From NCBI GenBank assembly GCA_003140115.1, contig PLIQ01000323.1, positions 1 to 24,246 on the forward strand: a stretch of DNA of 24,246 nucleotides, given 5' to 3'. Every line of letters begins with the position of its first letter. The stretch's first letter is position 1. This DNA is from Actinomycetota bacterium. Its GTDB lineage: Bacteria > Actinomycetota > Actinomycetes > Streptosporangiales > Streptosporangiaceae. The notes under the pieces are model-generated. The model was not told the DNA's origin, searched no databases, and saw nothing but the letters and a program-made list of their open reading frames with translations. Shown here piece after piece: positions 9,017 through 24,246 of the stretch. The position numbers and the translations under genes are program-made.

Positions 9017-11002
9017 ATGGCCATCGAGACCCAGCCGGAGCGAGCCGACCCCACGGGCCGCGGTCCCGAGCCCGCGGGAGCGGCCGTGCGGCCCTGGTGG
9101 CTGCGCCCGGGCATCCCGGCCGGCCTGATCGGGGCCGTGATCGGCTACTTCCTCGGTCACTGGCTCGGCAACTTCCTGGGCGGGGACTACGCTCGCAGTT
9201 CGCTGGCCGACGCCAACGACGTGGCCATCGTGCTCGGCTACGCCTTCGCCGTGCTCGGCTGGCTGGCCGGCCTGGGGGTGTTCAACGACCTGTTCGGGCT
9301 CATGCTCGGCCGGCCGCTGCCCGAGGAGCGCAGGCTGGTCGGCAAGGAGGATCCCGGCCTGGGCAAGTACTTCCGGTACACGCTGGACCACAAGGTCGTG
9401 GGCATCCAGTACCTGTACGGCATGATCGCCTACTTCCTGACCGGCGGCCTGTTCGCCATGGCCATCCGGAGCGAGCTGCTCTCGCCGTCGTACCACCTCA
9501 TCGGCCCCGAGCAGTACCTTGAGGTGGTCGGCGAGCACGGCACGATGATGATGATGATGATGTCCTCGGTCATCCTCGGGCCGTTCGGCCAGTACTTCGG
9601 CCCGCTGCTGATCGGGTCCAAGCGGGTCGCGTTCCCCCGGCTCGAGGCGCTCGGCTTCTGGCTGACCCCGGCCTCCTACGTCATCCTGCTGTCCGCCATC
9701 TTGTTCGGCGGGTTCCCCACCGGCTGGACCGGGTACGAGCCGCTGGCCACCCAGGCCACCTCGGGCATGGACGCCTACTACTTCGCGTTCGGCCTGATGG
9801 GCATCTCGATGATCCTGGCCGGCTTCAACATGATCGTCACGATCATCAACTACCGGGCCCCCGGGATGCGCTGGAGCAGGCTCCCGATGTTCGTCTGGTC
9901 CATGTTCACCGTGGCGTTCCTGCAGGTGCTGGCGGTCCCGGTGCTGGTCGGGGCGTGCTATATGGGCCTGAGCGACCGGACCTTCCAGACCGCGTTCTTC
10001 ACCAACCAGCTCGGCGGCAGCAGCTACCTGTACGAGAACCTGTTCTGGTTCTTCGGCCATCCGGAGGTATACATCCTGGCCCTGCCGGGGTTCGGCGTCA
10101 TCTCCGAGGTGGTCTCGGTGTTCTGCCGAAAACCGCTGTTCGGCTACAAGATCGCGGCGGCCGGCATGCTCGGCGTCGGCATCTTGTCCTTCTTCGTCTG
10201 GCAGCACCACCTGTTCGACAGCGGGATCAACCCGGACATGCGGCCGCTGTTCATGCTCACCACCGAGCTGATCTCGATCCCGACCGGGTTCATCTACCTG
10301 GTCGGCATGGGCACCTTCTGGAAAGCCAGGATCCGGTTCTCCATCCCGATGCTGTTCGCCCTGGCCTTCTATTTTAACTTCCTGATCGGCGGCATCAGCG
10401 GCGTGTTCCTGTCAGACGTGCCCGCCGACACAACCGAGCACGGCTCGTTCTTCGTCATGGCCCACTTCCACTACACGATCATGGGCGGGCTGATCTTCGC
10501 GTTCTTCTCCGGCATCTACTACTGGCTGCCGAAGATGACCGGGATCAAGCTGAACGAGACGCTGGGCAAGATCCACTTCTGGACCATGTTCATCTTCTTC
10601 AACAGCACCTTCCTGCCCCTGTTCGCGCTCGGCGTGATGGGCATGCCGCGCCGGGTGTTCGAGTACGCCCGCAACCTGGAGACGCTCAACGACTGGGTCT
10701 CGATCTCCTCGTTCTTGCTGGGTGTTTCGATCCTGATCTTCCTGTTCAACTTCGTCATGTCCATGCTGTTCTGGCGGACACCCGAGGTCGGAAACCCGTG
10801 GCGGTCGCGCAGCCTGGAGTGGCAGCTGTCGACTCCGCCGCCGCCGGAGAACTTCAAGCGGGTGCCGGTGATCCTGTCCAGTCCCTATGACTACGGGGTC
10901 AAGGACGCGCTGCCGGTGGCCGACCTGAACCCGCCGCCCGGCGTGATCGGCTCCGCCTACGCGCCGGCCGGCGCAGTGCCAGCCAGTACAGGGGAGGCAT
11001 AA
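9017..11002 (+). CDS. ctaD: Cytochrome c oxidase subunit I, divergent
   Basis: This 661-residue haem-copper oxidase subunit I starts 42 bases after ctaC with AGAGG seven bases upstream. All redox ligands are present: haem a H174 and H485, haem a3 H483, and CuB H348, H397 and H398. The cross-link tyrosine Y352 and the helix VI glutamate E350 are in GHPEVY. By-eye alignment shows D-channel entrance positions changed (usual N, D, N become Q192, R203, E210) and the K-channel lysine replaced by I426 in IPTGFI. An N-terminal extension of about 118 residues with two extra hydrophobic stretches precedes the usual LDHKVVGIQYL start. Six consecutive methionines follow the haem a ligand (177-182). The tail PWRSRSLEWQLSTPPPPENF is typical. 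The role, O2 reduction, is well supported; proton pumping is open. Confidence 0.95.
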   Translation: MAIETQPERADPTGRGPEPAGAAVRPWWLRPGIPAGLIGAVIGYFLGHWLGNFLGGDYARSSLADANDVAIVLGYAFAVLGWLAGLGVFNDLFGLMLGRPLPEERRLVGKEDPGLGKYFRYTLDHKVVGIQYLYGMIAYFLTGGLFAMAIRSELLSPSYHLIGPEQYLEVVGEHGTMMMMMMSSVILGPFGQYFGPLLIGSKRVAFPRLEALGFWLTPASYVILLSAILFGGFPTGWTGYEPLATQATSGMDAYYFAFGLMGISMILAGFNMIVTIINYRAPGMRWSRLPMFVWSMFTVAFLQVLAVPVLVGACYMGLSDRTFQTAFFTNQLGGSSYLYENLFWFFGHPEVYILALPGFGVISEVVSVFCRKPLFGYKIAAAGMLGVGILSFFVWQHHLFDSGINPDMRPLFMLTTELISIPTGFIYLVGMGTFWKARIRFSIPMLFALAFYFNFLIGGISGVFLSDVPADTTEHGSFFVMAHFHYTIMGGLIFAFFSGIYYWLPKMTGIKLNETLGKIHFWTMFIFFNSTFLPLFALGVMGMPRRVFEYARNLETLNDWVSISSFLLGVSILIFLFNFVMSMLFWRTPEVGNPWRSRSLEWQLSTPPPPENFKRVPVILSSPYDYGVKDALPVADLNPPPGVIGSAYAPAGAVPASTGEA

Positions 11003-11004
11003 CG

Positions 11005-11667
11005 ATGACGGACCTGACCTCCACACCCTCCGAAGCCGCGGCCGCGGCAGAGGACGAGGGCTTCTACCACGAGTCCGCGCTGAACGCGACCTGGACCGGC
11101 TCGCGGCTGGCCATCGGCGGGCTGACGTTCCTGTTCGGCGCGTTCCTGTTCGCCTACTTCTACCTGCGGTCCCTGAACTCCTCGGGCCTGTGGCAGGGGC
11201 CCGGCTTCGTCCGCCCGTCGCTGTGGATCGGCACCACGATCATGCTCCTGGCCGAGGTGTCGGCTGGCGTGCACTACTTCGGCCTGCAGCGGATCAAGGC
11301 CGGGGGCAAGAGTACCTGGCAGATCACCGGGCTGCTGGCCCTGGGCCTGGGGCTGGCGGCCGTGGCGTTCCAGATTTACCAGCTCGTAGACCTGCCCTTC
11401 GCACCGGGCAGCTCGGGCTACGCCAGCGTCTTCACCGGCTTCTACCCGGTCTTCCTCGTGATCCAGCTGGCCGTGCTGCTCTGGCTGGAGATCCTGCTGG
11501 CCAGGTCACGGTTCATCCCGGCCCTGTCGTTCGTGGAACAGCCCCCCACATACACTGAGACCCACGCCGTGCAGCGGTTCCAGGCCTCGCTCAGCGCCTT
11601 TTCCACCACCTGGAACTACATGGCCCTGATGGCCCTGCTGTTCTGGTTCCTGTTCTACGCTCTGTAG
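11005..11667 (+). CDS. ctaE: Cytochrome c oxidase subunit III
   Basis: The 220-residue protein begins two bases after ctaD, with GGGGAGG at 10991-10997. After a polar N-terminus it has five hydrophobic helices (about 36-54, 72-90, 104-122, 144-165, 197-219), the five-helix form of subunit III usual in actinobacteria. Recognisable pieces are FLFGAFLFAYFYLRSL in the first helix and TWNYMALMALLFWFLFY at the end. Subunit III stabilises subunit I and supports sustained turnover. Its place in the order II-I-III is the standard one. Confidence 0.93.
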   Translation: MTDLTSTPSEAAAAAEDEGFYHESALNATWTGSRLAIGGLTFLFGAFLFAYFYLRSLNSSGLWQGPGFVRPSLWIGTTIMLLAEVSAGVHYFGLQRIKAGGKSTWQITGLLALGLGLAAVAFQIYQLVDLPFAPGSSGYASVFTGFYPVFLVIQLAVLLWLEILLARSRFIPALSFVEQPPTYTETHAVQRFQASLSAFSTTWNYMALMALLFWFLFYAL

Positions 11668-11702
11668 TAACGTCCCGAAGCGAAGAGGGAGAGGGACCTG
11701 GA

Positions 11703-12122
11703 GTGGATTCCAACGTCAGCGCGTGGACCTTCGGCGGATCGATACTGACCTTCGCCTTCCCGATGATCCTGTTCATCGTGGTCGCGGGCGCGCTGTACGT
11801 CCTGTACACCAAGCCGGAGTCCGTTCCCGGGCATAGTGCCCCGTGGCTGCAGCGGTCGGTGTCCTACACGGCGGTGCCCGGGAAGGCAGCGGTCGCTCAC
11901 GACGCCCGGGCCCAGGCCGCCCTCGAGGCGGCGCAGGTCAGGCCCGCCGCGGCCGGAACGGCCGGGATCGTCACGGGCGCAACGGCCGAGCCGGACCCCG
12001 CTGCTGAGACCCCAGCGGCCGAGACCCCAGCGCCTGAGACACCGGCCGCCGAGACCCGCGTTGCCGAGACACCGGCCGCCGAGACTCCAGGCCCGGCGAC
12101 CGAGACCGAGGACGCGGAGTGA
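11703..12122 (+). CDS. Small one-helix protein with A-E-T-P repeat tail in the oxidase operon
   Basis: The 139-residue product starts at a GTG with GAGGG at 11691-11695. One membrane helix (about 11-35) is followed by a region that includes [17 protein letters not shown] and an Ala-rich helix. The tail (about 98-138) is acidic and low in complexity, built from imperfect repeats of A-A-E-T-P. I know no family for it. Its position between subunit III and the haem o synthase, with 4-bp overlap to the latter (GTGA), suggests a small oxidase subunit or assembly factor, comparable in position to small subunit IV proteins. The tail is probably disordered, and its length may vary between strains because the coding repeat (about 11998-12115) is prone to slippage. 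Confidence 0.75.
11998..12115 (+). repeat. Coding repeat encoding A-E-T-P units
   Basis: Imperfect repeats of about 12-15 bases, with core GCCGAGACNCC, encode the low-complexity acidic tail of the small oxidase-operon protein. Copies differ mainly at third positions, so the repeat is under amino-acid-level rather than purely sequence-level conservation. Confidence 0.55.
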
Positions 12123-13114
12123 CCTCTGCTGCCGCACTTCCCCAGCTCGACCAGCGCGGGACCCCGCCTCGTGGCCGCCGTACCGCGGGTACGGTGGCGC
12201 GCGCGCTGGTCGCGCTGACCAAGCCGCGGATCATCGAACTGCTCCTGGTCACCACGGTCCCGGCCATGCTGCTGGCCCAGCGCGGGCTGCCCTCGCTCAA
12301 GCTCGTCCTGGTCACGCTGATCGGCGGCACTCTCGCCGCGGGCAGTGCGAACACGATCAACTGCTACATCGACCGGGACATCGACGCGCTGATGAAGCGC
12401 ACCTCGCGCCGCCCCCTGGTCGTGAACGGCAAGGGCACCATCAAGCCCTGGGAGGCCCTGGCCTGGGGCATCCTCCTGGGGGCGGGCGCCACCCTCCTGC
12501 TCGGCCTGATGGCCAACTGGCTGGCGGCCTCGCTGGCCGACACGGCCATCTTGTTCTACATCTTCGTGTACACGCTGCTGCTCAAGCGGCGCAGCCCGGC
12601 CAACATCGTGATCGGCGGCGCCGCGGGCTGCTTCCCGGTGCTGGTCGGCTGGGCCGCGGTCACCGGTACGGTCAGCCCGGCCGCGGTGGTGCTGTTCGCC
12701 GTCATCTTCTTGTGGACCCCGCCGCACTTCTGGGCGCTGGCCATGAAGTTCCGCAAGGACTACGCGGCCGCGAACGTGCCGATGCTGCCCGTGGTGGCGT
12801 CGCCCGCCGCGGTCGCCCGCAAGATCTTGTGGTACTCCTACGCCATGGTCGCGGCCACCTTGGCCCTGGTCCCGTTCGCCGGCTGGATCTACGGCGCCGC
12901 GGCCGCCGCGCTGGGAGCCTGGTTCCTGGTCGAGGCGCACGGGCTGGACACCCGCATCCGGGCCGTTCAGGCCGCGGAAAGCGCAACCCCAAGCGGCGCC
13001 GAAGCCCCCGCCTCGCCGGCCCCGATGCGGCTGTTCCACCTGTCCATCGCGTACCTGACCCTGCTGTTCGCCGCGGTCGCGGCCACCGCCCTGCTCCCGT
13101 GGGGCCACTGGTAG
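12119..13114 (+). CDS. ctaB: Protohaem IX farnesyltransferase (haem o synthase)
   Basis: This 331-residue UbiA-family membrane prenyltransferase attaches a farnesyl group to haem b to make haem o, the precursor of haem a for the oxidase encoded upstream. The first aspartate motif is N81-x3-D85-x3-D89 in NCYIDRDID, followed by RRPLV. The second conserved region is [17 protein letters not shown] with [11 protein letters not shown], typical of CtaB rather than other UbiA enzymes. About nine hydrophobic segments are visible. The GTG start overlaps the previous stop (GTGA) with GAGGAC five bases upstream. A linker of about 25 Ala/Pro/Ser residues before the last helix ([19 protein letters not shown]) is longer than usual. 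No haem a synthase (ctaA) lies in the window. Confidence 0.95.
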
Positions 13115-16237: not shown

Positions 16238-17395
16238 GTGACCAATTCCTGGGAGGTCGTCCCCGCCGCTGACCAGCGTGCCCGCCTGATCAGGAGCCGC
16301 CTGACCAGGATCCGCCAGGGGCTGACCCCGGCCGAATGGGCCCGCTTCGGCGGCATGGTCGCGACGGTGGTGACGCTCAACGTGGCCGGCTGGGTGATGC
16401 TAACCGCCGCCCTGGGCGGGCACTACCACATCGGCAAGACGACGGTGTTCGGCGTGGGCACCGGGGCCTTGGCCTACACCCTGGGCATGCGGCATGCGTT
16501 CGACGCCGATCACATCGCGGCGATCGACAACACCACCCGCAAGCTGGTCGGGGAGGGCAAGCGCCCGCTCTCGGTGGGGTTCTTCTTCTCCCTGGGCCAC
16601 TCCAGCGTGGTGTTCCTGCTCGCGATCCTGCTGAACTTCGGCATCCGGGACCTGGACCGCCAGGTCAGCAACGACGGCTCCGGGCTGCACAGCATCACCA
16701 GCATCGTCGGGACCTGCGTGTCGGGGTTTTTCCTGTTCCTGATCGCCGCGTTCAACATCGTCATCCTGGCCGGGATCCTCAAGGTGTTCCGGGAGATGCG
16801 GACCGGCGCGTATAACGACCAGGAGCTCGAGGAGCAGCTGAACAAGCGCGGCCTGATGAACCGGTTCCTGGGCCCGCTGGCCCGCCGGGTCGACACGCCG
16901 TGGAAGATGTACCCGATCGGGTTCCTGTTCGGCCTGGGCTTCGACACCGCCACCGAGGTCGCGCTGCTGGTCCTGGCGGGCACGGCGGTGGCCGGCGGCC
17001 TGCCGTTCTACGCCATCTTGTCGCTGCCGATCCTGTTCGCGGCCGGGATGAGCCTGTTCGACACCGCCGACGGCTGCTTCATGAACTTCGCCTACGACTG
17101 GGCCTTCTCCCGGCCCGTCCGCAAGGTGTACTACAACCTGACCATCACCGGTCTCTCGGTTTTCGTGGCCGTGTTCATCGGCGCGGTCGAGCTACTGGGC
17201 CTGCTCGCCCAGGACCGCAACCTCAACGGCTCGTTCTGGGGCTTCCTGGAAACCTTCAACATCAACACCGCGGGGTTCTTCGTCGTCGGGGTGTTCGTGG
17301 TGACCTGGATCGTCGCCCTGGCCGTCTGGCACTTCGGCCGCATCGAGCAGAAGTGGGAAACCGGCCGCCCCCTGGCCGCCGACACCCCCGAATAA
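16238..17395 (+). CDS. Nickel/cobalt permease, NiCoT (HoxN/NixA) family
   Basis: The 385-residue protein carries the NiCoT signature RHAFDADHIAAIDN (85-98; H86, D89 and H92 are the metal-selectivity residues) in the second helix. Further family motifs are FSLGHSSVV (118-125), LGFDTATE and LFDTADGCFMNFAY. About eight hydrophobic helices are present, with a large charged cytoplasmic loop (FREMRTGAYNDQELEEQLNKRG) in the middle. It imports Ni(II) and/or Co(II) for enzymes such as urease, hydrogenase, Ni-superoxide dismutase or B12 synthesis; none is encoded here. The frame is open further upstream into the permease gene, but the GTG at 16238 is chosen because the operator and leaderless promoter lie directly before it. 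Confidence 0.94.
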   Translation: MTNSWEVVPAADQRARLIRSRLTRIRQGLTPAEWARFGGMVATVVTLNVAGWVMLTAALGGHYHIGKTTVFGVGTGALAYTLGMRHAFDADHIAAIDNTTRKLVGEGKRPLSVGFFFSLGHSSVVFLLAILLNFGIRDLDRQVSNDGSGLHSITSIVGTCVSGFFLFLIAAFNIVILAGILKVFREMRTGAYNDQELEEQLNKRGLMNRFLGPLARRVDTPWKMYPIGFLFGLGFDTATEVALLVLAGTAVAGGLPFYAILSLPILFAAGMSLFDTADGCFMNFAYDWAFSRPVRKVYYNLTITGLSVFVAVFIGAVELLGLLAQDRNLNGSFWGFLETFNINTAGFFVVGVFVVTWIVALAVWHFGRIEQKWETGRPLAADTPE

Positions 17396-17646: not shown

Positions 17647-17864
17647 AGGCGCTTTCCGCCATGCGCCATAAGGCTTCCGAGACATTCGACTCCAATCGGT
17701 AGCATCTCTAGTACTCTTGGCGAGCGAAGTAATAGGGCTCGGCGAAAGCGGGTAAGGACCGGGCTGGGGAAGCTATTACTTTACGGGGAAGGCACTGGCT
17801 AGTTCCCGGCTGACAGGTGGCGTTTCGGGACAAGCCGACAATTACAGAATATGGGGGCATTTGC

Positions 17865-19190
17865 GTGGAATCGTCATACTCGGCGCGTCAATGGGATCTC
17901 CCTCAGATAAGCAGCCATCTGCTGGCGGAACAGCCGGCTGGCGGTGCCGTACCCCGCCGGCGCCCGCTCGACATCTTGATTGTGACGTCTGAGGCTCCGC
18001 CCATCGTCTCCGGGATCTCCACCTGCATTGACCGGCTGGCCACCGGGCTTATGGCCCGCGACCACCGGGTCAGGGTGCTTTCTTGCGCCCAGATCCGCCG
18101 GCTCGCGTTTGGCGAGTGGCGGCTGTCCTCCTTCGTCGCCCACTGGCCGCGGATAGTTCGCCAGTTGCGGCATTTCGACGTGGTGAACTTGCACGGGCCG
18201 GTACCGACCATGAGCGATGTCTTCCTCTGGCTGTCCGACTGGCTGCCGCCGTACGTCCGTCCGGCCATCGTTTACACCCATCACTCCCCGATCGACATCC
18301 AGGGCGCGTCCCGGATGTCGACGTACTACAACACGCTCCACCGGGCCCTGGCCCTGCGGGCCGACCGGATCGTGGCCAGCAGCCCGCACTACGCCCGCCA
18401 GCATCGCAGCCGGTACGGCCCCATGGTTCGCTCCATTCCGTGGGGGGCGGACCCGCGGGTGTCACCGCCCGCTCGGGCCCGGCGAGCCGCGGGCGAGCTG
18501 AACGTCCTGTTCGTCGGGCAGATGCGCCCGTACAAGGGGGTGGAGACGCTGCTGGCCGCCGCGGCCGGTCAGCCCTGGCTGAAGCTCACCTTGGTGGGAG
18601 AGGGGGCCGGGCTCGCCAGCTACCAGCGCATCGCGGACCGCCTGGCCGTCACCAACGCCCGGTTCACCGGACGGTTGTCCGACGCGGAGCTACAGCACCA
18701 GTACGCGATCAACGACGTGGTGGTGCTGCCCTCGGTCACCCAGGCCGAAGCCTTCGGCCTGGTGCTGATCGAGGGCATGGCGGCCGGATGCGTCCCGGTG
18801 GCGTCCGACCTGCCGGGGGTCAGGGATGTGGCCGGCCCGACCGGCCTGGTCGTGCCGGCCGGAGACCCGCAGGCCCTGCGGGCCGCCTTGCGCGGACTGG
18901 CCCAGGACACCGGACGAATGGAACGCCTTCAGGTGGCGTCCAGGCTCGCCGCGCAGGCTCTCACCTGGGACCGCTGCGTCGCCTCCTACGAAGGGGTCCT
19001 CACCGAGGCCGTACGCAGCCGCTACGCCAGACTGCACGGGCTCACGATCTTGCCTGAGCTGGACGAGCCCGAACCGTGGTGGGCGATCCCGGCGCCGGGC
19101 GCCGATCCGTGGAATGACGGCTTGCTGCCGGCTCGTCAACCACTACCCGTACCGGAGGTGTCGGCCAGCATCGCCGAGCTTGGCCGTTGA
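17865..19190 (+). CDS. GT4-family glycosyltransferase
   Basis: The 441-residue GT-B enzyme has an N-terminal Rossmann domain starting at PLDILIVTSEAPPIVSGIST, the usual acceptor-side G-rich opening. The C-terminal nucleotide-sugar domain has VLFVGQMRPYKGVETLL, LTLVGEGAG and the E-x7-E motif in AEAFGLVLIEGMAAG, with the two glutamates eight residues apart. It should be cytoplasmic, transferring a sugar from a nucleotide donor to a lipid-linked or glycan acceptor with retention. It is followed by a flippase/GT-C fusion and another GT4 with 4-bp overlaps. The start is uncertain: the GTG at 17865 has GGGGG seven bases upstream, while an in-frame GTG at 17817 has no ribosome site. A C-terminal extension of about 60 residues after the catalytic fold is Pro-rich. 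Confidence 0.9.
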   Translation: MESSYSARQWDLPQISSHLLAEQPAGGAVPRRRPLDILIVTSEAPPIVSGISTCIDRLATGLMARDHRVRVLSCAQIRRLAFGEWRLSSFVAHWPRIVRQLRHFDVVNLHGPVPTMSDVFLWLSDWLPPYVRPAIVYTHHSPIDIQGASRMSTYYNTLHRALALRADRIVASSPHYARQHRSRYGPMVRSIPWGADPRVSPPARARRAAGELNVLFVGQMRPYKGVETLLAAAAGQPWLKLTLVGEGAGLASYQRIADRLAVTNARFTGRLSDAELQHQYAINDVVVLPSVTQAEAFGLVLIEGMAAGCVPVASDLPGVRDVAGPTGLVVPAGDPQALRAALRGLAQDTGRMERLQVASRLAAQALTWDRCVASYEGVLTEAVRSRYARLHGLTILPELDEPEPWWAIPAPGADPWNDGLLPARQPLPVPEVSASIAELGR

Positions 19191-22100
19191 GCCTCCTGGC
19201 CCCGCGCCGGGCCCGGCCGAGCCGCGTCGACGCCGAATTCTCGGCGGCGGCGGGCGGTGTGATTCTGGTCGGGCGCTTCGCCGCCGGGGCCGTGCTCAAC
19301 TATGCCTTCGGGCTCGGGCTCGCCTGGCTCCTGGTACCCGCGCGGTTCGGCGTGGTCAGCGCGATTCAGAACGTGCTGTTGCTCGCCGCGGGACTGCTCA
19401 CCGCCGGGCTGCCGTGGGCGCTGGCCATTCGCGTCGCGGAGACCCACGGGGACCATCAGGCGGCGAAGCCCGAGTTCCGGACGGCCCTGGTCGCCAACCT
19501 CGGCCTCGGGGTCGTGCTGGGCACGGCGTTCATGGCCGCGCAGCTGTCGGGCCCGCGGCTGGTGCCCACCGGCTCCGTGGTCCTGGACCTGCTGGTGGCC
19601 GCGGAGATGCCCCTGCTGGCCGTGAACGCCATCCTGGCCGGAGTGGCCCAGGGCAGCCGGAGGTTCGCCGGGCTGGGCACGATGCAGGCCGGAGAGATCC
19701 TGCTGAAATGCGCGGCCGCCGCGGTGCTGGTGGCCGGGCTGCATACCGGTCCGGCCGGCGTCGCGCTCAGCTTCTTCCTCGGCACCGCGGGGTCGGTACT
19801 GATCGGCGTGCGGGCCTGCCGGGGACTTCTCCCCGGTCGCGGCCCGCTGGCGGGGCCTGGTTTCCTGGTCGACTCGGGCTCGATCTGGTTCGCGTCCGCC
19901 TCGGTGACCTTCCTCATCACCGCGGACCTGCTGGGCCTGGAGCTAGCCGGCCGGGCCGCGGGCGTGACGGTCGCGGTGCTCGGGAGCTACCAGGCCTGTA
20001 GTCTGCTGGCCCGGGCCAGCTTTTACGTCAGCGATGCGCTGGCCGATGCGGTTTTCCCCTTCATCGCCCACAGCGCGTCCCTCCGGGACAAGCACCGCTG
20101 GTTCGTGGCGGCCGCCCGGTGGGTGCCGCTGCTGATCATCCCGGTTCAGGCCGCCCTGTTCGCCGCGCCCGGACCGGTGCTGCGGTTGTTCCTGCCGCAC
20201 CAGTATTCCTCTTCCCTCGCTGAGGCGCTGCTCCGGGTGCTGGCCGCGGGAACGCTCGGCGCGCTCGTGACCGACATGCTCATGAAGAGCCTGTTCGCCG
20301 CCGGCCTGGGCCGTCAGGCCGCGCGGCAGATGCCCATCGCGGTCGCGGCGGAAGTGACCGGCCTGCTGATCCTCGTGCCCCACTTCGGCGCGCTGGGGGC
20401 GGCCTACGCGTACCTGCTGGCGAGCTATGTGAGCGTCCTCCTGCTGGCGCCGCTGTACCTGAAGGCACTTAACGTCCGCCTTCCCTCGGTTCGCCAGCTG
20501 GCCCGCTACCCCATCGAGTTCGTCCCCACCGCGGTCTTGTTCGCCGTGGCCGGACGCGCTCCGACCCTGGCCGCCTGGGGCCTGCTCGCGACGGGCACGT
20601 TGCTTTTCGTCAGGCCCGCCCGCCGCATGCGGCTGATCACGGACGAGGACATCGGCTTCCTGGAGAGCCTGCGCGGCCGGTGGAGCGCTCGGGCCCGGCC
20701 GCCGACCCGCCCCCGCTCCGGGAAACGGAAACTGCCGGCCGGGTGGCGCGCCGACGTCTGCCTGGCCGTGTTCTGCGCCTGCGTCGCGGCGGCCGCCATG
20801 CTGTACAACATTTCCACCAGCCCGGACGTGACCTACGACGAGGCCGTCTACACCTTCGCGGCCCAGCAGGTCGCCCAGGGCTGGCACCTGACGCTGGATA
20901 ACCAGCCGCTGTTCGTTCACCCGCCGCTGATGTTCCTGGTCCAGGCGACCTGGCTGCGCTTCACCAGGCACGCCTCAGGTGCGCTCGTTCCGGCCATCCG
21001 TGCCGCACGCCTGCTGGCCGCCTCGGTCGGCGCCGTGGACGTCCTGCTGATCGCGGCCCTGGCTTACCGGCTGACGGGCAGCGCCACTCCCGCCAAGCGC
21101 AGGGTGCTGACCGGTGTGATCGCCGTGGTCGCCGCCCTGGACCCCGTCCTTACCCGTTATGACCGCCAGGACGTGATCGAGCCGTTCGCGCTGTGCATCA
21201 GCCTGCTGACGCTGCACGCGGCCTGGCACCTGCGTACTCGCGGGTCGCTGGCGTACGTGTCTGTCACCGGTGTCCTCGGCGGCCTGGCCCTGCTGACCAA
21301 CGAGATCACGTTCTGCCTGATCGCGGTGCCGCCGCTGTTCGCGTTGCTCGAGCGGGATGGCCAGCTGATCCGGCGCTCGCTGGCCGCATTCGGGATCGCG
21401 ATTTCCTTCTACCTGTTGTTTCTGCTCTGGGCGCTGGAACTCGGCCTGGCCGGCGTCTTCGTGAGCATTCAGACCACGACGCTGCAGCGGTTCATCGGCC
21501 TGGTGCAGACCAGCGGCCTCAACGTCCCCGGGGTATCGCTGACGGCTGCCCTCGGCCGATCGGTCGGCCAGTACGCCAGCAGCTACATCGTGCTGGTCGG
21601 CGGGTTCGCCGCGTTCGTATGGTGCCGGCGCCGGCGGAACACCGCGAGCGGGAACTTCCTGGCGGCCTGGCTCATGGCGAGCTATGCCGCCGGCGGCTAC
21701 ATCGTGGCCCTCGGGACCCTGAACGAGCAATTCTTCGTCTACCTGATCCCGGCCAGCATCGTCGGGACCGTGCTGTTCGCGGATGCGGTGCTGGCCGGCT
21801 GGATCCGTCGCCGTCGCATCTGGACCGGCGGCGTCGTCGGCCCGGTCCGGACCTCCTGGCTGCCGCTGTCGATCGTTGCGGTCGGCTGCGCGGGCCTGGT
21901 GGGCCTGTCCGCCGCCGACTGGATGGCCAACTACAGCGGCCCCAGTGACGGCGTCGTGCTGGCCGACCAGTTCATCGCGAAAACGCTTCCCGCCTGTGAC
22001 GTCGTCAACGTCAGCGGCGACCCCCTGAAGTACTCCTACACGCTGGCCGGCCGGCCGTTCGCGTATTTCTCGGTCGGACCCGCCGCGCTCGCGGACGGGG

Positions 22101-23059
22101 TGCACTACTTCCTGCTGTCGCCCGAGGACGCCGCCGAGCGTGACGGCGACATGAGCCCGGAGCTGGCCAGCTGGATCAGGGACCACGGCCAGCGGCTGGC
22201 CATCTTCCCCAGCCAGGTCTACCAGACGGTGCAGCTCTGGCACGTGTCCTCCAGTCCCTTTGACCCGGTCGCGGACGTGACCGACATCGCCGACGGCATC
22301 TACGTCAACACGGTCGGTTCGGACTGCGGCGGGTACACCGTGACGGACGGGCCCCGGGGCCAGTTTTACGTCGCCTACCAGGCCCGCGGCGGCAAGCAGC
22401 TGCTTGGTGATCCGCTCAGCCGGCCCGTCGTGGAGGGCCGGGCCCGGGTTGAGCAGTTTTTCGCTGCCATGGTGCTCGCGACCTCGGGCGGCCGGGCCGT
22501 TCACGCGCTGCCCGTCGTGGCCATGTTCGCGAAGGACGCCCCCGGTGCGTACCGCCGCGCCCTGCTGCCCCCGGTCCGCTCCCGCGCCACGACCGCCGAG
22601 CGGCGCGGCTGGCTGACGAATCCGTCCATCACGCGCGCCTACCTGGACGGCGAGCCGATGACCGCGAGCAGTTACGCGGCCGCCGTCCGGCGTTACGGCG
22701 AACCGCTCGGACCGCCCGCCGCGCGATCCGGAGCCGGAGTCCAGCAGGCTTTCGCCGACGTGGTGCTCGACGTGCCGGCGCAGGGGGGGAGCGTGCACGC
22801 GGTGCCGGTCACTCCCGCCGCCCTCGCGGCGCGGGTGCTGAGCGTGCCCGCCCGGGACCGCGTCCTGCAGCGGGGGCCGACCCTGCCCAACCCGTATGTC
22901 CCGGGGCCCCCGGAACCCACCACGGCGAAGCCGTTCGCGCTGACCCTGAGCGCGGCCCTGCTCCTTTACGGCGGAATTGTCGATCGGCTGGCCTATCGGC
23001 GCCGCGGCGGGCCGCGGACCCCGGCCAGACCGCCTCGGCGGGACGGAGGGACGTCATGA
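19187..23059 (+). CDS. Fusion of lipid-linked-sugar flippase (MVF/MATE-like) and GT-C mannosyltransferase-like enzyme, with exported C-terminal repeats
   Basis: One uninterrupted frame of 1290 residues. Residues about 20-480 have some 12-14 hydrophobic helices in the pattern of Wzx/MurJ-type polysaccharide flippases (for example VPARFGVVSAIQNVLLLAAG and GALGAAYAYLLASYVSVLLL). A basic linker (RGRWSARARPPTRPRSGKRK) leads to a GT-C domain (about 520-910) with D551-E552 in VTYDEAVYTFA, H578 in FVHPPLMFL and RYDRQDVIEPF, typical of ArnT/PMT-like enzymes using polyprenyl-phosphate sugars. An exported part (about 915-1245) carries two similar repeats and is closed by a membrane helix (about 1248-1266). 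No start codon with a ribosome site lies near the junction. The TTG start makes a TTGA overlap with the GT4 gene; the stop overlaps the next ATG. Confidence 0.88.
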   Translation: MSLLAPRRARPSRVDAEFSAAAGGVILVGRFAAGAVLNYAFGLGLAWLLVPARFGVVSAIQNVLLLAAGLLTAGLPWALAIRVAETHGDHQAAKPEFRTALVANLGLGVVLGTAFMAAQLSGPRLVPTGSVVLDLLVAAEMPLLAVNAILAGVAQGSRRFAGLGTMQAGEILLKCAAAAVLVAGLHTGPAGVALSFFLGTAGSVLIGVRACRGLLPGRGPLAGPGFLVDSGSIWFASASVTFLITADLLGLELAGRAAGVTVAVLGSYQACSLLARASFYVSDALADAVFPFIAHSASLRDKHRWFVAAARWVPLLIIPVQAALFAAPGPVLRLFLPHQYSSSLAEALLRVLAAGTLGALVTDMLMKSLFAAGLGRQAARQMPIAVAAEVTGLLILVPHFGALGAAYAYLLASYVSVLLLAPLYLKALNVRLPSVRQLARYPIEFVPTAVLFAVAGRAPTLAAWGLLATGTLLFVRPARRMRLITDEDIGFLESLRGRWSARARPPTRPRSGKRKLPAGWRADVCLAVFCACVAAAAMLYNISTSPDVTYDEAVYTFAAQQVAQGWHLTLDNQPLFVHPPLMFLVQATWLRFTRHASGALVPAIRAARLLAASVGAVDVLLIAALAYRLTGSATPAKRRVLTGVIAVVAALDPVLTRYDRQDVIEPFALCISLLTLHAAWHLRTRGSLAYVSVTGVLGGLALLTNEITFCLIAVPPLFALLERDGQLIRRSLAAFGIAISFYLLFLLWALELGLAGVFVSIQTTTLQRFIGLVQTSGLNVPGVSLTAALGRSVGQYASSYIVLVGGFAAFVWCRRRRNTASGNFLAAWLMASYAAGGYIVALGTLNEQFFVYLIPASIVGTVLFADAVLAGWIRRRRIWTGGVVGPVRTSWLPLSIVAVGCAGLVGLSAADWMANYSGPSDGVVLADQFIAKTLPACDVVNVSGDPLKYSYTLAGRPFAYFSVGPAALADGVHYFLLSPEDAAERDGDMSPELASWIRDHGQRLAIFPSQVYQTVQLWHVSSSPFDPVADVTDIADGIYVNTVGSDCGGYTVTDGPRGQFYVAYQARGGKQLLGDPLSRPVVEGRARVEQFFAAMVLATSGGRAVHALPVVAMFAKDAPGAYRRALLPPVRSRATTAERRGWLTNPSITRAYLDGEPMTASSYAAAVRRYGEPLGPPAARSGAGVQQAFADVVLDVPAQGGSVHAVPVTPAALAARVLSVPARDRVLQRGPTLPNPYVPGPPEPTTAKPFALTLSAALLLYGGIVDRLAYRRRGGPRTPARPPRRDGGTS

Positions 23060-24246
23060 CCAGTCGCGCGGCGCAGGCCACGGGCGGGCAGCGAGAAGGA
23101 CGCTCGCTGCGCGTCCTGGTGGACGGCCGGGTCATGCAGGACCGTTACCACGGCATCGGCCGGTACACCTACGAGTTGCTGCGTGAGCTGAGCCGGCACG
23201 CGGTCGACCTGGTCATCTTGTACAGCCCGGACTCCGGCCGGCTGGACGTGAGCGAGCTGCTATCCCGCCGCACCGTCCGGGCGGTCCCCTGCCGGGTTCC
23301 GGTGGCGTCCCTGCGTTCCCAGTGGGTGCTCTCACGAGCCGTGCTGAGCACGCGGCCCGATGTGGTGTTCATCCCTTATCACCTCAGCGCCCCGGTGCTG
23401 GCCGGGCGGGTCCCCGTCGTCTCGGTGATCCATGACTGCGTGTTCGAACGGGACGCCGCGGCCAACGGCCCGTCGGCGTTCTCGGTGGCGTACCGCACCG
23501 CGACCCGGCTGGCCATCTGGTCTGCCGCCGCGCTAGCGACCCCGTCCCAGGCGTCCCGGCGCGACATCCGCCGCTTCTACGGCGCCGAACTCCCGGACGA
23601 GGCGGTCCTCCCGCACGGTGTGGGCCCTCAGTTCTTCTCGGTGCGAGACCGGCTCCGGCCCTCCGGACTCGCCCTTCCCGATCGCTACATCCTTCACGTG
23701 GGAGCGCAGCGTCCGCACAAGAACCAGCGCGTCCTCGTGGAAGCCATGTCGGTCCTGCGGGTCGGCCACCCGGATCTCGGGCTCGTTCTGGTGGGCCAGC
23801 CCGACCCCCGGATTCCCGATGAGATCGGAAAGCTCGTAACGGCACTGGAGGTGGGGGATCTCGTGTACCGCTATACCGGCGTCCAGGACGGAGCGCTCCT
23901 TGACCTGTATGGCAATGCGGCCGTGTTCGCCTATCCCTCGCTGGTCGAGGGGTTCGGGATGCCCGTCCTGGAGGCCATGGCGGCCGGGCTTCCGGTGGTG
24001 GCCAGCGACGCCGAGGCGATCCGGGAGGTCGCCGGAGACGGAGCCATCATCGCGCCCGCCCAGGCGACCGCGGCGTGGGTGCGGGCCCTGGACCAGGTGC
24101 TGACCTACCCCCGGTTGAGACGGGAACTACGCGAACGCGCGCAAGCCGTAGCCGCCGGGCGTACCTGGGCCCGCTCAGCCGAGCGCACCCTGGCCATGCT
24201 GGCGCGCGCGGCAGCGCGGGACGGGCAGGCAGCGCGGGACGGGCAG
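23056..24246 (+). CDS. GT4-family glycosyltransferase (3' end beyond the window)
   Basis: The frame opens at an ATG overlapping the fusion gene's stop (ATGA) and stays open for 397 codons to the window edge. The acceptor-side motif VDGRVMQDRYHGIGRYTYELL (split around residue 33, H-G-I-G-R-Y) and VIHDCVF are typical of mannosyltransferases of the WbaZ/MtfB kind. The donor domain has LHVGAQRPHKNQ (K222), LVLVGQPDP and the E-x7-E motif E298-E306 in EGFGMPVLEAMAAG. The catalytic fold appears complete by about residue 385, and the last visible residues are a repeated A-A-R-D-G-Q. It is the third member of the glycan operon, acting in the cytoplasm on nucleotide-sugar donors. Confidence 0.9.
   Translation, partial: MTSRAAQATGGQREGRSLRVLVDGRVMQDRYHGIGRYTYELLRELSRHAVDLVILYSPDSGRLDVSELLSRRTVRAVPCRVPVASLRSQWVLSRAVLSTRPDVVFIPYHLSAPVLAGRVPVVSVIHDCVFERDAAANGPSAFSVAYRTATRLAIWSAAALATPSQASRRDIRRFYGAELPDEAVLPHGVGPQFFSVRDRLRPSGLALPDRYILHVGAQRPHKNQRVLVEAMSVLRVGHPDLGLVLVGQPDPRIPDEIGKLVTALEVGDLVYRYTGVQDGALLDLYGNAAVFAYPSLVEGFGMPVLEAMAAGLPVVASDAEAIREVAGDGAIIAPAQATAAWVRALDQVLTYPRLRRELRERAQAVAAGRTWARSAERTLAMLARAAARDGQAARDGQ
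24211..24246 (+). repeat. 18-bp tandem repeat at the window edge
   Basis: Two identical copies of GCAGCGCGGGACGGGCAG (24211-24228 and 24229-24246) encode A-A-R-D-G-Q twice at the C-terminal end of the second GT4. The repeat reaches the window edge and may continue. Confidence 0.7.

What the first reader, a model, noticed from the sequence alone, without database searches (positions are those of the whole stretch)
19187..23059. Flippase fused to a polyprenyl-phosphate-dependent (GT-C) glycosyltransferase in one 1290-residue protein
The sequence shows a single frame joining a complete MVF/MATE-like flippase region to a GT-C region with the D-E and H-P-P loop motifs, then an exported repeat region and a last helix. 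The two activities are normally separate proteins. Joining them would couple export of a lipid-linked sugar to its use on the outer face, a one-protein flip-and-transfer machine. Flanking GT4 genes with 4-bp overlaps would supply the cytoplasmic steps. That coupling is inference; the fusion itself is read directly.
Basis: partly seen in the sequence, partly recalled or inferred. Interest (0 to 1): 0.7.

Follow-up and report, generated by a model that had tools for sequence, protein, structure and literature searches.

The report
Fused lipid-sugar flippase and GT-C transferase
One bacterial membrane protein joins a transporter that probably flips lipid-linked sugars to an enzyme that probably attaches such sugars outside the cell; the join is real and recurs in related bacteria, but what it makes has not been tested.

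Summary
Window 19187-23059 is one uninterrupted 1290-codon frame: a MOP (Wzx/MurJ-like) flippase, a short linker, a GT-C glycosyltransferase with D-E and H-P-P motifs, an exported region with two LGFP-like stretches, and a last helix. It is no sequencing accident: 97 distinct sequences, window included, carry both halves, two on named Actinoplanes contigs of 6.0 and 9.2 Mb. Homologues also occur as two genes, but in the 8 loci seen these are adjacent and at the nearest start codon overlap by 4 or 8 bp or lie 2 bp apart; the fused/separate state changed several times. In 7 of 8 two-gene loci a complete DPM1-like GT2 domain, of the kind that makes polyprenyl-phosphate sugars, is encoded nearby. 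That fits a GT-A / Wzx-type flippase / GT-C transmembrane glycosylation system such as GacI/GacK/GacL (PMC8035078). The window and the two other fused loci examined lack that GT2 nearby. Flipping the donor and using it in one chain is the best reading; flipping an oligosaccharide-lipid is a serious rival. New variant of a known kind.

The parts
19187..23059 (+). fused flippase / GT-C glycosyltransferase gene, 1290 codons, TTG start
   Evidence: open frame and translation; GC3 0.87-0.96 throughout; 96 other sequences with both halves
19223..20626 (+). residues 13-480: MOP-type (Wzx/MurJ-like) flippase domain, 14 helices by my count
   Evidence: model pLDDT 86.2; Foldseek best hit WzxE 9g9p, E 2.8e-7, TM 0.74 on the target; relative P0189 hits PF01943 and PF03023 above cut-off
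20627..20740 (+). residues 481-518: linker, placed in the cytoplasm by topology; low confidence at 508-516
   Evidence: linker length 4-123, median 18, in 67 of 88 fused sequences, those with both domain ends aligned
20741..21934 (+). residues 519-916: GT-C glycosyltransferase membrane domain
20837..20842 (+). D551-E552, first extracytoplasmic loop
   Evidence: kept in 37 of 37 rows
20918..20926 (+). H578-P579-P580 motif
   Evidence: each kept in 35 of 36 rows
21935..22927 (+). residues 917-1247: ectodomain, exported by topology
   Evidence: strand-containing region in the model
22370..22522 (+). residues about 1062-1112: first LGFP-like stretch (likeness recalled, by eye)
   Evidence: alignment; weak Foldseek hit of the model to C. 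glutamicum mycoloyltransferase A C-terminal domain 6swz, E 0.038, TM 0.31 on the target
22682..22831 (+). residues about 1166-1215: second LGFP-like stretch (by eye)
   Evidence: alignment; the L002 relative hits PF08310 weakly, E 0.27, below cut-off
22928..23008 (+). residues 1248-1274: last transmembrane helix
   Evidence: model
17976..19190 (+). GT4a glycosyltransferase gene (the listed ORF begins at 17817); overlaps the fused gene by 4 bp
   Evidence: PF00534 E 9e-27; start from a home-made gene finder; 46-57% identical relatives near the pair in 8 of 10 other loci
23056..24246 (+). GT4b glycosyltransferase gene, runs off the window; overlaps by 4 bp
   Evidence: PF00534 E 3.1e-30; 36-49% identical relatives in 5 of 10 other loci

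Best explanation
[quoted passage not shown] A GT-A enzyme (DPM1-like GT2) charges polyprenyl phosphate with a sugar on the inner face. The N-terminal Wzx-type flippase domain turns this lipid-linked sugar over. The GT-C domain, tethered to it by a cytoplasmic linker, transfers the sugar on the outer face to a cell-surface glycan held by the LGFP-like ectodomain. Shown: one chain with the two predicted folds in this order; conserved acidic and H-P-P loop residues; the two-gene form as neighbouring, mostly overlapping genes; a DPM1-like domain near the pair in 7 of 8 two-gene loci. Inferred: substrate of the flippase, donor of the GT-C, acceptor, the role of the ectodomain, the source of the GT-A step in fused species, and that fusion matters by keeping the two activities together rather than by a built channel.
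For: Single frame. 97 distinct fused sequences, window included. Flippase fold nearest WzxE. GT-C fold; the structures that PMC8035078 section 8 lists for GT-C enzymes of such systems (AftD, ArnT, STT3, AglB, PglB) are all in the match list, though any GT-C fold might give that. PF13231 (PMT_2) at E 0.01 in 18 of 31 members scanned; that review lists PMT-2 for 8 of 17 GT-C enzymes. The nearest start codons of two-gene pairs give overlaps of 4 bp (4 of 8) or 8 bp (3 of 8) or a 2-bp gap (1 of 8); in L001 and L003 an earlier start is also possible. DPM1-like GT2, best PDB hit dolichol monophosphate mannose synthase 5mlz E 7.2e-39, in 7 of 8 two-gene loci; in L009 the order is DPM1-like GT2, flippase, GT-C with no GT4a between. 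Wzx-type flippases have been suggested for this job (GacK).
Against: The DPM1-like domain was not found near the gene in any of the 3 fused loci examined (window, L008, L040), though the window ends right after GT4b and the L008 genome has weaker DPM1-like hits elsewhere (E 3.7e-17 and 2.0e-12). MOP flippases with solved activity carry lipid diphosphates (recalled). The fold cannot tell lipid-phosphate from lipid-diphosphate donors: STT3 and AglB score as high as ArnT. In the genus of G005, 7 of 13 matching genomes have only a GT-C relative and no flippase match, so related GT-C proteins may do without this flippase. The distance correlation of the halves has no control gene. No activity is known for any member that I saw.
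Confidence: 0.55

Rival explanations
1. The flippase half moves the acceptor, not the donor: an undecaprenyl-diphosphate oligosaccharide built by the GT4 enzymes is flipped by the Wzx-like domain, and the fused GT-C then extends it with a sugar from a separately flipped lipid, or transfers it whole as an oligosaccharyltransferase would.
For: Nearest flippase structures are WzxE and MurJ. GT4 genes overlap the fused gene in the window and one or more lie near the pair in 10 of 10 other loci. STT3 and AglB are among the best GT-C fold matches. No DPM1-like gene near the 3 fused loci.
Against: A DPM1-like polyprenyl-phosphate sugar synthase domain lies near 7 of 8 two-gene pairs; no phosphoglycosyl transferase was noticed, but not every neighbouring gene was annotated. 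GT4b is absent in 5 of 10 and GT4a absent or a remnant in 2 of 10 other loci, while the flippase is next to the GT-C in 10 of 10 (the loci were picked by their GT-C). PMT_2 proteins are mostly lipid-monophosphate users (recalled).
Confidence: 0.3
2. The two halves work in one pathway but not on one another's substrate; the fusion only fixes their ratio and location, as other fusions in the same gene cluster do.
For: Linker length varies from 4 to 123 residues and is of low confidence. Other members fuse too: flippase with a PF13480 protein in P0117, GT-C with a phosphatase-like tail in L003 and P0107, GT2 with GT4a in L001 and L002. The fused/separate label changes 8 times on the GT-C tree, at least 5 by starred branches.
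Against: Flippase and GT-C are adjacent or fused in the window and in all 10 other loci, which is closer than most other members; how other pairs co-vary was not measured.
Confidence: 0.13
3. Assembly or frameshift artefact that joins two genes.
For: Relatives are two overlapping genes, so a one-base error could in principle join them. No reads were available.
Against: 96 further sequences carry the fusion, including Actinoplanes sp. TFC3 and a 9.2 Mb contig whose length equals that of P0188's contig, Actinoplanes sp. N902-109; GC3 is steady through the junction.
Confidence: 0.01

Closest known systems
GacI / GacK / GacL-type multi-component transmembrane glycosylation system (review PMC8035078: section 8 and passages read)
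   Same: GT-A enzyme, Wzx-type flippase and PMT-2 GT-C enzyme; sugar added outside the membrane
   Different: here flippase and GT-C are one chain; large ectodomain; no DPM1-like GT2 found beside the fused genes; substrates unknown; sequence kinship to the Gac proteins not tested
GtrA-type three-component systems such as CsbB/GtcA/YfhO (PMC8035078)
   Same: division of labour
   Different: their flippase is a small GtrA-type protein, here a MOP flippase of about 14 helices
WzxE and MurJ lipid flippases
   Same: fold of residues 13-480
   Different: no sequence hit in PDB; they are separate proteins that carry lipid diphosphates (recalled)
ArnT, PMT, STT3/AglB (GT families 83, 39, 66; numbers recalled)
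   Same: GT-C fold, acidic first loop
   Different: 10-15% identity in the structural alignments with them; no fused flippase; CAZy family not assigned here
Citrobacter youngae GT136 ribofuranose system (PMC11127046, passages read)
   Same: lipid-phosphate sugar synthase, flippase, GT-C
   Different: its flippase model has four helices; its GT-C founds another family; separate genes

Membership tests
MOP superfamily flippase (Wzx/MurJ kind) | two-bundle MOP fold of about 14 helices | tested here: met
   model of residues 1-930, pLDDT 86.2, helices 13-480; Foldseek WzxE TM up to 0.74 on the target, MurJ chains 0.56-0.73
MOP superfamily flippase (Wzx/MurJ kind) | Pfam profile match at cut-off | tested here: inconclusive
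   window piece 10.9 bits to PF01943, cut-off 28.2; relatives pass, P0189 47.7 bits and PF03023 31.7
MOP superfamily flippase (Wzx/MurJ kind) | transport of a lipid-linked sugar | not testable with these tools
   needs a flipping assay
GT-C glycosyltransferase, PMT_2/ArnT-like | GT-C fold | tested here: met
GT-C glycosyltransferase, PMT_2/ArnT-like | acidic residue(s) in the first extracytoplasmic loop | tested here: met
   D551, E552 in 37 of 37 rows
GT-C glycosyltransferase, PMT_2/ArnT-like | PF13231 match at cut-off | tested here: inconclusive
   window segment 17.2 bits, cut-off 26.1; relatives pass: L001 35.8, L003 28.9, L008 26.9
GT-C glycosyltransferase, PMT_2/ArnT-like | polyprenyl-phosphate sugar as donor | not testable with these tools
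   indirect only: DPM1-like domain near two-gene relatives
Multi-component transmembrane glycosylation system | GT-A polyprenyl-phosphate sugar synthase | tested here: inconclusive
   none found in the window, which ends in GT4b; present in 7 of 8 two-gene loci, not found in 3 of 3 fused loci
Multi-component transmembrane glycosylation system | flippase plus GT-C encoded together | tested here: met
   same chain; neighbouring genes in relatives
Multi-component transmembrane glycosylation system | glycosylation of a surface polymer | not testable with these tools
   no product known
LGFP repeat | PF08310 match at cut-off | tested here: inconclusive
   no hit for the two window pieces; L002 relative 12.0 bits, cut-off 22; weak structural hit to 6swz

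The most novel reading that the evidence does not exclude
A self-contained flip-and-transfer enzyme: the flippase domain hands the lipid-linked sugar straight to the tethered GT-C active site, so that this lipid pool need not mix with those of peptidoglycan or protein mannosylation; the fusion arose more than once from an overlapping gene pair, and the cluster's own DPM1-like synthase was lost alongside (3 of 3 fused loci, about two lineages).
Probability: 0.25. Interest if true: 0.75.

Novelty: new variant of a known kind. Interest (0 to 1): 0.5.

Why it matters
[quoted passage not shown] subtilis systems whose flippase is unknown. A natural fusion names a partner and gives a single protein in which flipping and transfer could be measured together. 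It would also tie a large Wzx-type flippase, not only small GtrA-type ones, to a GT-C enzyme. Database names describe one half at a time: 'oligosaccharide flippase family protein' for P0188 and 'glycosyltransferase family 39 protein' for P0190.

Tried and rejected
Profiles: Pfam, NCBIfam and PDB sequence searches of the window protein gave nothing; PDB searches with two alignments gave nothing either. Frameshift or assembly artefact: rejected for the family. ORF clusters include antisense frames; at least three proteins first scanned from them look antisense and were dropped; the module table rests instead. Genome counts were limited: 1 of 197 genomes of the class of G002, the centre itself; 13 of 67 in the genus of G005, of which 6 have flippase and GT-C (2 fused, 4 separate, five of these six being loci already held) and 7 only a GT-C relative; 1 of 150 in the family of G002, again the centre. 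Only 2 to 10 candidates per genome were scored there, so these are lower bounds. No held genome of the window's own lineage was reached; one homologue, 62% identical, is named Streptosporangiaceae (P0045), and placing the window there is a guess. Protein searches listed 120 of 124 hits, 58 and 25, each among about 7995 scored candidates, so the counts are not complete. The 60 'flippase only' rows include fragments (P0127, P0154 and others), P0117 and the 8 locus genes; the 41 'GT-C only' rows include P0120 and the 8 locus genes. Tree: 123 of 128 rows; 5 dropped for short coverage (P0080, P0094, P0118, P0126, P0178), P0120 left out beforehand; quick method with long branches that meet, so 8 changes is rough, and P0075, counted as separate, may be a fragment. 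Linker statistics use 67 of 88 fused rows. The distance correlation used 94 pairs (r 0.968), 23 outer ones (0.884) and 8 separate ones (0.971), without a control gene. The ectodomain was not folded alone (cap reached), so its kinship to LGFP stays weak. Papers: six full-text searches for a natural flippase/GT-C fusion; two searches found no paper, one search listed 12 of 60, and I judged the rest by title and start of abstract. One search listed PMC3412221, which holds the words 'flippase fused to' and 'Wzx fused'; I did not read it (probably reporter fusions, recalled). I saw passages of PMC13390465, PMC11127046 and PMC8035078 and section 8 of the last. Most subscription journals and preprints are not in that library.
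Full report
What is there. Window 19187-23059 (+) is a single open frame of 1290 codons. Third-position GC stays at 0.87-0.96 in all windows and is 0.94 over the junction. The gene overlaps the GT4 gene before it by 4 bp and the GT4 gene after it by 4 bp, so the three are likely translated from one message (inference).

Is the fusion real and general? Yes. Of 192 sequences mapped for the domains, 88 have both flippase and GT-C (79 with and 9 without the ectodomain by my length rule), 41 GT-C and ectodomain without flippase, 60 only flippase (fragments included), 2 only ectodomain, 1 none by the rule. A third search brought 12 new ids, 10 with both halves, one of them (P0190) evidently the protein of locus L008 (same strain and contig length); that makes 97 distinct fused sequences, window included. 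Nine loci in named genomes came from one scan: 8 have two genes (4 Actinoplanes or Paractinoplanes, 4 Pseudonocardia) and one, Actinoplanes sp. TFC3, is fused, without most of the ectodomain but with the last helix. A further fused locus lies on a 9.2 Mb contig (G249, L040) of the same length as the contig of P0188, named Actinoplanes sp. N902-109.

How fused and separate forms relate. In the two-gene loci the nearest start codon of the GT-C gene gives an overlap of 4 bp (L001, L003, L005, L006) or 8 bp (L002, L004, L009), or a gap of 2 bp (L007); earlier starts are possible in L001 and L003. On a tree of 123 GT-C domains the label fused/separate needs 8 changes, at least 5 by starred branches (quick method, long branches). 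Distances of the two halves agree: r = 0.968 over 94 pairs, 0.884 over the 23 outer ones, 0.971 over the 8 separate pairs with 0 of 2000 permutations as high; there was no control gene, so this shows joint inheritance, not interaction. The pair has been inherited as a unit and has fused or split several times.

The cluster. Ten loci besides the window were compared with tblastn. GT4c (cut by the edge of the fetched stretch in some), a lipoprotein with weak likeness to GH42, and a single-helix phosphatase-like protein that seems to lack the catalytic cysteine (by eye) are in 10 of 10; a PF13480 FemAB-like protein in 6 of 10; GT4b in 5 of 10; GT4a in 8 of 10, with a remnant in L004 and none in L009. 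In L001, L003, L005 and L006 GT4a and GT4b lie upstream on the other strand. A GT2 domain, in L001 and L002 fused in front of GT4a, is complete in 7 of 8 two-gene loci, a remnant in L004, and not found in the 3 fused loci (window, L008, L040). Its best PDB match is dolichol monophosphate mannose synthase, E 7.2e-39. Three fused loci represent about two lineages, so the link between fusion and loss of this domain is suggestive only, and the window ends at 24246, inside or at the end of GT4b. The L008 genome has weaker DPM1-like hits elsewhere.

Likely working. A polyprenyl-phosphate sugar synthase, a flippase and a GT-C enzyme are the three parts of the transmembrane glycosylation systems reviewed in PMC8035078. 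That review states that Wzx-type flippases have been suggested for some, names GacK as one, lists PMT-2 for 8 of 17 GT-C enzymes and says that ectodomains of some large GT-C enzymes are thought to bind the acceptor polymer (section 8). The fused protein fits that scheme, with flippase, transferase and a putative acceptor-binding region in one chain. Which lipid is flipped is not shown. The main rival is that the flippase moves an oligosaccharide-lipid made by the GT4 enzymes. The linker (4-123 residues, median 18, 67 of 88 rows) and the low pTM argue for a tether, not a fixed channel. Against the scheme, 7 of 13 matching genomes in the genus of G005 have only a GT-C relative.

Novelty. Six full-text searches for a natural flippase/GT-C fusion listed none recognisable as one from titles and abstract starts. 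Database names cover one half at a time. The parts are known kinds; the fused arrangement, its recurrence, and the DPM1-like domain near its two-gene relatives appear undescribed within what I could search. I rate it a new variant of a known kind.

Noticed in passing
P0119, P0120, P0121, P0195: Large proteins (1000-1581 aa) share the ectodomain (38-39% identical); in those read (P0119, P0120, P0195) the GT-C-like domain has lost the aspartate of the D-E pair (D551) and the H-P-P motif, and carries receiver-like or coiled-coil-like N-terminal parts: possible dead GT-C paralogues with a sensing or scaffolding role (motif judged by eye).
   Followed up: partly
G005:C12:262257-264571: A GT-C relative in the Actinoplanes sp. 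TFC3 genome has a weak flippase match (E 9.3e-16) right beside it, so a second, differently arranged pair may exist.
   Followed up: no
P0117: The same flippase family fused to a PF13480 (FemAB-like) protein instead of a GT-C; a PF13480 gene is also a neighbour in 6 of 10 loci.
   Followed up: partly
L003:12200-12718, P0107, L002:12187-12849, L008:12726-13382: Phosphatase-like (DSP-PTPase-like, below Pfam cut-off) single-helix protein that seems to lack its catalytic cysteine; separate gene in some loci, fused behind the GT-C last helix in others.
   Followed up: partly
P0196: Distant flippase relative with a long C-terminal part that looks like a nucleotidyltransferase by eye.
   Followed up: no
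L004:7894-9972: Remnants of the GT2 and GT4a domains in front of the flippase, as after a large internal deletion.
   Followed up: no
window 9017-13114 and 16238-17395: Cytochrome oxidase subunit I and heme o synthase genes, and a NicT-type nickel transporter just before the GT4a gene; they look ordinary.
   Followed up: no
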